Shown here: piece after piece, positions 2,756 to 5,244 of the stretch | Layout: each line of letters starts with the position of its first letter | Position numbering within the stretch: the stretch's first letter is position 1 | Source of the DNA: an archaeon | GTDB lineage: Archaea; Thermoproteota; Nitrososphaeria; Nitrososphaerales; CADDZS01 | DNA length: 5,346 nt | Direction of reading: 5' to 3' | Assembly: GCA_021792315.1 (NCBI GenBank) | Contig: JAJYUX010000098.1 | Span: forward strand, 1-5,346 | Notes under the pieces: generated by a model | The model's database searches: none | The model's input: only the letters and a program-made list of their open reading frames with translations | Told to the model about the DNA's origin: nothing | Translations under genes and position numbers: made by a program

Positions 2756-3661
2756 TCAGAGATGAAACCAGGATCTATTCCCTGGCGAAGACAAACCGAC
2801 TCTTGATCTTTTTCCCATTCTAGAATAAACAAGCAAGGCAGCAAGATAGAATCCGATAAAGAAAGCATATCCGAGCCAGTTGTGGATAGACCACAAGGCA
2901 TTTGCTCCGCCAACGTAGCCAATCCAGATCAGTCCGGCTATTCTAACCGCATTCAAGAAGACAAGAACTGTGACTCCTACAATGGCTACCTTCGCAGTTG
3001 AAGACAAGTCTTTTCTCAAGTCAAGATGCATCAAAGCGAGAAGCCCCAAGAATGTGGTGATAGAAATTACACTGGAACATCCGGCAGTTACCGTGCCGGA
3101 GACAAGACCGCCAGCCCTTGAAATGAGACTGAACTGGCTCCCATCCCAAGTTACTGGAAGACCCAGCAATGACACAATCTTTGCAGAAGAAACTGTTGAG
3201 ATTGAAACAAGCGGTGCGCCAAAACCCCATTCCAAGACTGAAGGAGCGGCGATTCCGACTGAATATATCGCCGCGTAGGGAAGCACGATCCTATTTGTAA
3301 GCGGGTTCATTAAAAGGGACATTCCGTAAAAAGTCGCGACCAGCGCCACTCCTGCGGTTTCGACCCAATTTCCGGTGATTCCTCTCAACACTACGAGCGA
3401 TGCTACCAAGCAAACTCCTACAATTCTCGTAGGAACCTCTGTATCCAACTGTCCTTCCATCAACAAGGTGTCGTGCAAGTCATTCCAGCGGAGGGCAAAC
3501 AGTACGCTCAGAAGTGCGGCGAACGGAATTGCGGGAAAGATGCTCCCGAAATTGTCGTTAAGATCCTGGCTCAGTAATTGCGGGAAGTTGGTAGCTGTAA
3601 TTGCCGCTATTCCCGACGAAGCGCTGACCCAGATAACAAAACGCAGATGTCCGGAATCCAT
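2756..3661 (-). CDS. Archaeosortase (exosortase/archaeosortase family transpeptidase)
   Basis: A 301-residue integral membrane protein with about eight hydrophobic segments (near 8-24, 42-57, 78-95, 103-118, 126-143, 185-212, 223-247, 262-280). The exosortase triad is present in order and in the right settings: Cys195 in VTAGCSSV, Arg240 in FLNAVRIAG at the outer end of a span, and His260 in IHNWLGYAFF. The segment before the cysteine (LLGLPV, WDG, then a hydrophobic approach) also follows the family pattern. Known members cut secreted proteins near a C-terminal tripartite tail and are thought to transfer them to a membrane anchor. The usual CSG after the active cysteine is CSS here. The gene starts eight bases after the stop of a protein with such a tail, with no Shine-Dalgarno of its own, so it is probably translated by coupling and acts on that neighbour. 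I cannot assign it to a named archaeosortase subtype; the PEF-type substrate tail points toward an ArtC- or thaumarchaeal-like class. Confidence 0.87.
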   Translation of the reverse strand: MDSGHLRFVIWVSASSGIAAITATNFPQLLSQDLNDNFGSIFPAIPFAALLSVLFALRWNDLHDTLLMEGQLDTEVPTRIVGVCLVASLVVLRGITGNWVETAGVALVATFYGMSLLMNPLTNRIVLPYAAIYSVGIAAPSVLEWGFGAPLVSISTVSSAKIVSLLGLPVTWDGSQFSLISRAGGLVSGTVTAGCSSVISITTFLGLLALMHLDLRKDLSSTAKVAIVGVTVLVFLNAVRIAGLIWIGYVGGANALWSIHNWLGYAFFIGFYLAALLVYSRMGKRSRVGLSSPGNRSWFHL

Positions 3662-3669
3662 GTAGGCCG

Positions 3670-5244
3670 TCAGCGGTGGTATTTAGGGCCACGTTCTAAA
3701 GGATGACGCCTGATTACCAGATATGAAGCGACAATGAGTAGCGTGAAGACAGCTGTAATGACTATTTGGAATGGAAATTCTGGAACGCCGCCACCCTTAG
3801 AAGCAGATGTTCCAGTTGAAGTTGTCACACCGCCATTAGTGGATGAGTACGTTGAGCTGGTGGAACCAGTTGTTCCTTGTGGTGAGCTGCTGGACGACAA
3901 TTCCACGTTAGCGAGTTGACTCAACTGTATTGAAGACCAAGTGGCAGAGTTTGCGGTACTCGATGTTGGAGTCGGCGCTCCTGGCGGCAAGGCAAGATGA
4001 ACTGTGCCGGCTGAGTCAGTACCACCAACCAGAGTGAAGTTTCCGGGGAAGGAAGACGTAGAGTTGAAAGCTTCAAAAACCGATGACATATTGATCTGGT
4101 TTCCCTGCCTAGTAATGGGTGGATATACCGTGAGGCCACTCGTTGCAATTTTGACTGTATATTCTCCACTTGCTTGCTGACTTTCGCTGTACGTGGCTTT
4201 AAAATGGGACAAATTGAATTTAGTCGAGTTCAGAAGCTGATAGGGAACCGTCGTAGATTGCCCATAAGTACTTTGGGTCTGTGGGGTCATGCTTTCCAAA
4301 AGCTTTGTCAACTGGGTGAGATTGATATTTTGGGCCGCTTGAAGCGAGACTTGAAAGCCCGCGATGCCATTTGAGTAACTCAAATTGTAACTGTAGCTCT
4401 TGATGGACGAGAAGACTATCGACAGAGCCGAGAAGAGCGACTCGCATTGGGGTTGACTGTATATCGAACCACCACTTGAGCTATAAGTGGATCCGCCCGT
4501 ACTTAGAAGTGCGGGACAATACTCTTGAGTGATAAAAGCAGCCGGCAAAGCACTAATGTTTCCAGATAACTGAATATTGGCACTTATCAGAGCTGAACTT
4601 GACCCATAGTTGGCATTGATTGATTCCTGCGAAACACTCAGTCCCGCATAGGGAACTTGGCTCGCAAAAGTGTTAAGATAGGTTGCGTTTATTTCGTTCT
4701 GAAGATGAGTGACGAGCTGACTGATCGTGCTTTGGTCATATGTTACTCCTCCTTGGTAAGTGCCATACTGAAAAGTTGTATTACCGGTAGCTGTGATTGA
4801 ATTGCTATTGCCGTTATAATTCATCAGAAAGGAAGAGTAAGGAGATGATATGCCAGGCACTATCTGAAGAGTTATCGATCCTCTCGACACATCGTTCGAA
4901 TACGAACCAGAAATTGATACAGATCCTGTGTCGTTGTACGGTGCCTGATTCCTATATTGGTTAGGAATGGAAGCACTACCGCTGACGATCAAAGAGACTA
5001 TACCATTTGAGGTGGTAGATGAAACATGCAGGCTTGCGTCCGGAATTGTTCCTGGCTGGGTCGAATTTGTAAGTGTGGCGTTAAAAGAAATTGTCACAGC
5101 ACCTTCTGGGTACACCGTCAGTTGAAGTGACTCGGATTCAGACTGCGATTGCCCGAAGGATTCCAGGGTGACGGCGGAGGAGAAAGCTAGTACTACTACA
5201 ACAAAAAACGCTATGGTGATCGACCTAATAGAACTTGATTGCAA
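3670..5244 (-). CDS. Secreted, probably glycosylated surface protein with PEFPF-type C-terminal sorting tail
   Basis: A 524-residue protein of no family I recognise, built like an archaeosortase substrate. Residues 1-28 are a signal peptide (basic Arg7, hydrophobic core 10-23, cleavage plausible near 25-32). Residues 35-420 are rich in Ser, Thr, Asn, Gln and Tyr and have 13 N-X-S/T sequons (N55, 60, 104, 155, 186, 229, 287, 308, 339, 344, 385, 394, 402). There are only two cysteines, C243 and C267, which could form one disulfide. Residues 426-482 are a Ser/Thr-rich stalk. The end is GGGVPEFPF (484-492), a transmembrane stretch (493-511), RR (512-513) and a short basic cytoplasmic tail. It is followed after eight bases by the archaeosortase gene. 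The start is TTG at 5244: an in-frame TAA lies ten codons upstream, and no ATG or GTG gives the signal peptide. No catalytic motif is visible, so it may be structural, an adhesin or an S-layer-associated protein. Confidence 0.85.
   Translation of the reverse strand: MQSSSIRSITIAFFVVVVLAFSSAVTLESFGQSQSESESLQLTVYPEGAVTISFNATLTNSTQPGTIPDASLHVSSTTSNGIVSLIVSGSASIPNQYRNQAPYNDTGSVSISGSYSNDVSRGSITLQIVPGISSPYSSFLMNYNGNSNSITATGNTTFQYGTYQGGVTYDQSTISQLVTHLQNEINATYLNTFASQVPYAGLSVSQESINANYGSSSALISANIQLSGNISALPAAFITQEYCPALLSTGGSTYSSSGGSIYSQPQCESLFSALSIVFSSIKSYSYNLSYSNGIAGFQVSLQAAQNINLTQLTKLLESMTPQTQSTYGQSTTVPYQLLNSTKFNLSHFKATYSESQQASGEYTVKIATSGLTVYPPITRQGNQINMSSVFEAFNSTSSFPGNFTLVGGTDSAGTVHLALPPGAPTPTSSTANSATWSSIQLSQLANVELSSSSSPQGTTGSTSSTYSSTNGGVTTSTGTSASKGGGVPEFPFQIVITAVFTLLIVASYLVIRRHPLERGPKYHR
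3706..3786 (-). other. C-terminal protein-sorting signal (VPEFPF, hydrophobic helix, Arg-Arg)
   Basis: Encodes residues 487-513 of the surface protein: the VPEFPF motif, an approximately 19-residue hydrophobic helix and two arginines. This tripartite order matches the PEP-CTERM, PGF-CTERM and PEF-CTERM signals recognised by exosortases and archaeosortases. The adjacent Ser/Thr-rich stalk and sortase gene strengthen the call. Confidence 0.8.

What the first reader, a model, noticed from the sequence alone, without database searches (positions are those of the whole stretch)
2756..5244. Dedicated archaeosortase-substrate operon
Seen: a signal-peptide protein ending in VPEFPF + hydrophobic helix + RR is followed, after eight bases, by a membrane protein with the Cys195/Arg240/His260 exosortase triad. 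Known: exosortases and archaeosortases process substrates with such tails, and most serve many substrates scattered over the genome. Inference: the tight, probably translationally coupled pair suggests a one-to-one system devoted to anchoring this single surface protein, and the PEFPF tail may define its own class.
Basis: partly seen in the sequence, partly recalled or inferred. Interest (0 to 1): 0.75.

Follow-up and report, generated by a model that had tools for sequence, protein, structure and literature searches.

The report
Archaeal sortase with adjacent tagged protein
Two neighbouring genes encode a membrane enzyme and a tagged surface protein that it probably anchors; relatives show that the enzyme often keeps such a neighbour but commonly has further tagged proteins elsewhere, and that different surface proteins can carry the same tag.

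Summary
In detail: a 524-aa protein ending VPEFPF + helix + RR lies 8 bp upstream of a 301-aa archaeosortase whose Cys195/Arg240/His260 are invariant in a 38-row alignment. The enzyme passes only superfamily-level models, none of the named models listed. Its nearest placed relatives are Nitrososphaerota MAGs. Pairing is conserved: of 28 related genomes with readable context, 20 have a tail gene immediately upstream, 1 with one gene between, 1 convergent, 6 none. Tails occur in 28 of 29 genomes with the enzyme and 10 of 371 others. 'One-to-one' is not general: 20 of 29 have two or more such tails, and homologues of the window protein in three of them are scattered. Adjacent bodies fall into groups without BLAST similarity yet share the tail; a homologue in a genome without detected PF09721 lacks the motif. 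Best reading: a small-regulon archaeosortase with a neighbouring substrate whose ectodomain is replaceable, plus scattered substrates. Cleavage and anchoring are inferred. The window's genome is not held, so its own tail count is unknown.

The parts
2756..3661 (-). archaeosortase (PF09721/TIGR04178), 301 aa
   Evidence: 145 proteins at E<=1e-3, itself included, of 8000 candidates scored; AlphaFold2 mean pLDDT 86.3
3077..3079 (-). Cys195 codon, proposed nucleophile
   Evidence: invariant in 38 rows of A1; role by analogy with archaeosortase A (PMC7157517 passages)
2942..2944 (-). Arg240 codon
   Evidence: invariant in A1
2882..2884 (-). His260 codon
   Evidence: invariant in A1
3662..3669 (-). 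8-base gap between substrate stop and enzyme start
   Evidence: gaps in relatives mostly -14 to +31
3670..5244 (-). tail-bearing surface protein, 524 aa, TTG start
5152..5244 (-). putative signal peptide (about residues 1-31)
   Evidence: hydrophobic stretch aligned with N-termini of P0122 and P0123; no predictor run
3787..3903 (-). Ser/Thr/Gly-rich linker (about residues 448-486)
   Evidence: sequence; similar linkers before tails in relatives
3769..3786 (-). signature motif VPEFPF (residues 487-492)
   Evidence: P-x-F-P invariant in the 36 tails of A4, chosen partly by pattern
3712..3768 (-). C-terminal hydrophobic helix (residues 493-511)
   Evidence: tail profile match E 1e-18
3673..3711 (-). 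basic C-terminus RRHPLERGPKYHR
   Evidence: Arg nearly invariant in A4

Best explanation
The pair is the home locus of a small-regulon archaeosortase. Shown from sequence: the enzyme belongs to the exosortase/archaeosortase superfamily with an intact Cys/Arg/His triad; its neighbour has a signal-peptide-like start and a tripartite tail; the tail class co-occurs with this enzyme lineage; a tail gene is usually kept next to the enzyme although its ectodomain differs between lineages; most genomes with the enzyme have further tail proteins elsewhere. Inferred: after export the enzyme cuts at or near the PEFP[FYL] motif through a cysteine thioester, releases helix and basic end, and passes the new C-terminus to a membrane lipid, so that the ectodomain is displayed on the cell surface. 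The neighbouring protein is a default cis substrate; others are served in trans.
For: Superfamily match and triad. Tail gene immediately upstream in 20 of 28 genomes with readable context, loci found by enzyme sequence alone. Tails in 28 of 29 genomes with the enzyme against 10 of 371 others; among enzyme genomes that gave no tail to the profile, 7 of 7 first met, or 7 of 8 if G021, which has none, is added. The same tail stands on bodies without mutual BLAST similarity at the same locus, and on the enzyme tree the commonest body group needs 7 changes, 5 of them forced by well-supported branches. Within the window protein's ectodomain family, homologues in G014, G015 and G065, which have the enzyme, end in [IV]PEFP[LYF]; the homologue in G063, a 2.7-Mb MAG with no PF09721 match at E<=0.1, lacks the motif. 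Mechanism by analogy with archaeosortase A and lipid anchoring (PMC7157517, passages).
Against: No cleavage, lipidation or display was measured. Six of 28 genomes have no tail gene beside the enzyme. G101, G106 and G163 have strong tails but no PF09721 match; they are 0.8-1.0 Mb, perhaps incomplete, and in G101 and G106 no enzyme lies beside the tail gene. G148 has strong tails and a window-protein homologue ending IPEFP but only a distant archaeosortase. G071 keeps an intact tail protein while the enzyme beside it is reduced to a C-terminal remnant. The genomes are related MAGs, so p-values overstate independence, and 21 of the 29 supplied tails to the profile or are near kin of those that did.
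Confidence: 0.75

Rival explanations
1. A truly dedicated one-to-one system: in the window's own organism the enzyme processes only the 524-aa protein.
For: 8 of 29 related genomes show exactly one tail at E<=1e-8, and in 6 of these 8 it is adjacent; G017, whose adjacent tail is 86% identical to the window's over 28 residues, is one of them.
Against: 20 of 29 relatives have two or more tails; homologues of the window protein are non-adjacent tail proteins in G014, G015 and G065. MAG gaps and capped scoring make single-tail counts lower bounds.
Confidence: 0.2
2. The tail is only an ordinary C-terminal membrane anchor and the adjacency reflects co-expression of surface genes; the enzyme acts on something else.
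For: Homologues without the motif (G063, G084, P0122) still have a C-terminal helix and basic end, so plain anchoring may work for this protein family.
Against: The second Pro and the helix Tyr, not fixed by my selection pattern, are each kept in 45 of 47 scattered tails; the motif co-occurs with the enzyme; the neighbour slot is kept while bodies change.
Confidence: 0.07
3. The enzyme is an ArtC-type archaeosortase and the tail a PEF-CTERM signal, i.e. a known pair in a new host.
For: ArtC is the best-scoring named model (35.8 bits) and PEF is shared with PEF-CTERM.
Against: 35.8 bits against a cut-off of 100; TIGR03024 hits none of three tails (window, G001, G020) and a fourth, remote one at 13.7 bits against 23.
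Confidence: 0.1

Closest known systems
Archaeosortase C / PEF-CTERM (ANME-2 and, as recalled, methanogens)
   Same: Pro-Glu-Phe signature and archaeosortase of the PF09721 superfamily (PMC5244752 passages)
   Different: 35.8 bits against the ArtC cut-off of 100; tails tested not accepted by TIGR03024; motif runs on as PEFP[FYL]Q
Archaeosortase A / PGF-CTERM (Haloferax)
   Same: Proposed cysteine chemistry, C-terminal cleavage and lipid attachment (PMC7157517 passages)
   Different: Different tail motif; no ArtA model among those listed at E<=1; lipid attachment not testable here
Rhombosortase / GlyGly-CTERM
   Same: Tail-and-protease pairing, adjacent genes in most single-target genomes (PMC3237569 abstract and passages)
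   Different: Unrelated protease; there target and protease are far apart in multi-target genomes, whereas here 14 of 20 genomes with two or more tails keep one immediately upstream
PEFG-CTERM proteins of ammonia-oxidising archaea
   Same: Similar motif in the same phylum (PMC6593220 passages)
   Different: Residue after PEF is Pro, not Gly; no PEFG model appeared for four tails scanned at E<=10, though I did not check that the library holds one

Membership tests
Exosortase/archaeosortase superfamily (PF09721, TIGR04178) | score above curated cut-off | tested here: met
   54.7 vs 25.7 and 45.7 vs 23 bits
Exosortase/archaeosortase superfamily (PF09721, TIGR04178) | conserved Cys, Arg, His | tested here: met
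   C195, R240, H260 invariant in 38 rows
Exosortase/archaeosortase superfamily (PF09721, TIGR04178) | transpeptidase/protease activity on CTERM substrates | not testable with these tools
   needs experiment
Archaeosortase C (TIGR03762) with PEF-CTERM (TIGR03024) | enzyme above ArtC cut-off | tested here: not met
   35.8 bits vs cut-off 100
Archaeosortase C (TIGR03762) with PEF-CTERM (TIGR03024) | tail recognised by TIGR03024 | tested here: not met
   no hit at E<=10 for the window tail and two relatives; 13.7 vs 23 bits for a fourth tail; HMMER's filters may drop weak hits of so short a model
Archaeosortases E, F and exosortases D, G, K, R, S | enzyme above the named model's cut-off | tested here: not met
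   each listed model is far below its cut-off
Tripartite CTERM sorting signal | motif + helix + basic end at the C-terminus of an exported protein | tested here: met
   export judged by hydropathy and homologues only
Dedicated (single-target) sorting system | one target per genome | tested here: inconclusive
   own genome not held; of 29 relatives 8 have one, 20 more, 1 none at E<=1e-8

The most novel reading that the evidence does not exclude
The position beside the enzyme is a display slot: sortase gene and sorting tail stay while unrelated ectodomains (a small ~100-residue domain, an NHL-type propeller, a Vps10-like protein, the window's own kind) are exchanged in front of the tail, so that one anchoring machine presents lineage-specific surface proteins. 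The window tail is 86% identical to that of G017, which has an unrelated body, but only 36-50% identical to tails of its own ectodomain homologues, as exchange upstream of the tail would predict.
Probability: 0.3. Interest if true: 0.65.

Novelty: new variant of a known kind. Interest (0 to 1): 0.48.

Why it matters
It gives an uncultured archaeal lineage a candidate surface-anchoring pathway with a defined enzyme, a defined tag and a short client list, outside the named models tested. Several of these genomes also carry a second archaeosortase with its own convergent neighbour and a different tail, so enzyme-tail specificity could be tested within one genome. Keeping an adjacent substrate in multi-target genomes departs from the pattern reported for rhombosortase.

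Tried and rejected

Display-slot idea, wider test: mean identity over 28 tail residues was 0.429 between adjacent tails on different bodies, 0.413 adjacent-scattered, 0.424 among scattered tails (22 adjacent, 47 scattered; G153, G071 and duplicate G007 dropped). So only the window-G017 pair stands out; the best scattered tail is 64% identical to the window's. The pair is not generalised.

Counting. The 29 enzyme genomes are those with A1 E<=1e-77; the other 7 of 36 hits (G071 remnant, G153 fragment, G125, G148, G172, G175, G321) are counted among the 371. G021 has the enzyme at a contig edge and no tail; it is dropped from the adjacency count only. G022's enzyme frame is interrupted in the MAG and is counted as adjacent. 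G005 and G007 have identical adjacent proteins. Two G019 tails (C35, C40) have the same score and may be one gene at contig ends; G128 and G143 counts include short frames. One search scored 19 of 21-28 candidates in six genomes, one search scored 3 per genome at most, so counts are lower bounds. One search used the table typed by hand at E<=1e-8.

Body groups rest on BLAST at E<=1e-3 with the last 60 residues removed (24 proteins, including G009, G073 and G153). Pfam was run on 6 of them. The 'small' group has only a sub-threshold MG2 match in one member; propeller is supported by Pfam for G018, G032 and G178. In the tree I labelled G178 as propeller although BLAST did not join it; all six labels together, which include 'no neighbour' and 'unknown', need 10 changes against 14.3 in shuffles (0 of 200 as low), so the label is also clustered by kinship. 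G007, G022 and G153 were left out of the tree; six second-type enzymes were added, one (G125) on a very long branch; the window's place is unresolved.

G032: the list was read by eye; PEF-type tails at 12383, 497808, 512675, 753012; a PAQFP-type tail at 750807 flanks the enzyme on the other side and is not counted.

P and F of the motif are partly fixed by my search patterns.

Literature: Haft et al. 2012 is not held; what I know of its content is recalled. Seen as passages only: PMC3237569, PMC8416519, PMC7157517, PMC5244752, PMC6593220; the rest as search listings. No description of this pair turned up in those listings and passages, which leave out most subscription journals.

Full report
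What is there. On the minus strand a 524-aa protein (3670-5244) is followed after 8 bases by a 301-aa archaeosortase (2756-3661). The tail GGGVPEFPF-helix-RR matches a profile made without it at E 1e-18, next best window frame 0.9. The enzyme passes only superfamily-level models; the best named model, ArtC, scores 35.8 against a cut-off of 100. Its triad is invariant in 38 aligned rows. The substrate's start is uncertain: the TTG start gives a hydrophobic N-terminus aligned with two homologues, while the database call starts 49 residues later.

Relatives. One scan of genome contigs with the enzyme alignment gave 22 loci; record titles read Thaumarchaeota, Nitrososphaerota or Nitrososphaerales for 13, 'archaeon' for 7 and 'bacterium' for 2. 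The window's own organism is not told, so its placement is inferred. A search of 400 genomes of one order gave 36 with a match, 29 of them clear members. Of 28 with readable context, 20 have a tail gene immediately upstream on the same strand, G009 has one gene between, G073 has it convergent, and G006, G008, G010, G015, G065 and G128 have none. Gaps run from -14 to +31 bases in 21 of 22 pairs measured (window and G153 included); G017 is ambiguous between 1 and 61.

One enzyme, several clients. A tail profile over the same 400 genomes hit 38: 28 of the 29 enzyme genomes and 10 of the other 371. Most of those 29 contributed tails to the profile or are near kin of contributors, so the fairer test is the genomes first met: 7 of 7, or 7 of 8 with G021, which had given none. 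Shared ancestry makes the p-values (1e-33; 9e-11 and 7e-10) unfit to be taken at face value. At E<=1e-8 the 29 genomes carry 0 (1 genome), 1 (8) or 2-12 (20) tails. In the single-contig relative G032 (1,504,237 bp) there is one PF09721 protein and at least four PEF-type tails, one adjacent.

The window protein itself. Its ectodomain has eight homologues in hand at 29-41% identity. In G014, G015 and G065, which have the enzyme, they are not beside it and end in IPEFPL, VPEFPY and IPEFPF. In G148, with a distant archaeosortase, it ends IPEFPI. In G063 (2.7 Mb, no PF09721 match at E<=0.1) and G084 (an exosortase-like protein of another kind) the motif is absent; P0122 lacks it and P0123 has VLEFPY, with unknown genome content. 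The sample is small, but it points to the motif following the enzyme rather than the body.

Same slot, different bodies. Bodies of 24 neighbouring tail proteins fall by BLAST into a small-domain group of 14 (one member with a weak, sub-threshold MG2 match), a group of 7 with NHL/propeller matches in the two members scanned, and three with no match to the rest: G017 (Vps10/sortilin-like), G178 (NHL) and the window. On the enzyme tree the group of 14 (12 in the tree) needs 7 changes, 5 forced by well-supported branches; labels are nonetheless more clustered than in shuffles. So neighbour position and tail outlast the ectodomain. The window tail is 86% identical to that of G017 over 28 residues although the bodies do not match and the enzymes are 51% identical, while tails of four of its ectodomain homologues are 36-50% identical. 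A wider comparison did not show the same trend.

A second system. Nine of the first 22 genomes carry a second PF09721 protein. In G005, G007, G010, G014, G015, and in G172 and G175, a gene with another tail (P[LDE][FI]PxG) lies convergent to it, 395-780 bases away, in four cases with a short ORF between. In G006 the tail gene precedes and overlaps it on the same strand; G002 shows none; G016's enzyme lies at a contig edge; G017's second enzyme is of a different kind.

Mechanism and limits. Cleavage through a cysteine thioester and lipid transfer are taken from a speculative model for archaeosortase A (PMC7157517, passages). Nothing here shows processing. Translational coupling is suggested by spacing only. 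Adjacency persists in multi-tail genomes (14 of 20), unlike the rhombosortase pattern (PMC3237569, abstract and passages).

Noticed in passing
L116, L119, L122, L120, L046, L185, L186: A second archaeosortase (ECSG motif) with a convergent neighbour bearing a P[LDE][FI]PxG-type tail in seven genomes.
   Followed up: partly
L189:6635-8089: G148 archaeosortase-like protein carries an extra C-terminal region ending in its own PDFG-helix-KRR tail, as if enzyme and substrate were fused.
   Followed up: no
L188 (about 6218-6535): G071 keeps an intact 1176-aa tail protein, 62% identical to G017's over 1074 residues, beside only a C-terminal remnant of the enzyme.
   Followed up: partly
L278, L279, L280, L281, L282, L297: Homologues of the window protein lie next to a 373-375 aa FtsX/MacB-like permease (my reading; no family scan), divergent in five genomes and same-strand with an ATPase-like gene in G063, suggesting a transporter partner.
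   Followed up: no
window:771-2603: HerA-like ATPase (DUF87, 8e-14), far below the equivalog cut-offs.
   Followed up: no
window:3-686: Start of a gluconate/galactonate dehydratase-like gene cut by the window edge.
   Followed up: no
L008:3674-6758: G008, which lacks an adjacent tail gene, has a large repetitive surface-type protein directly downstream of the enzyme, cut by the contig end.
   Followed up: no
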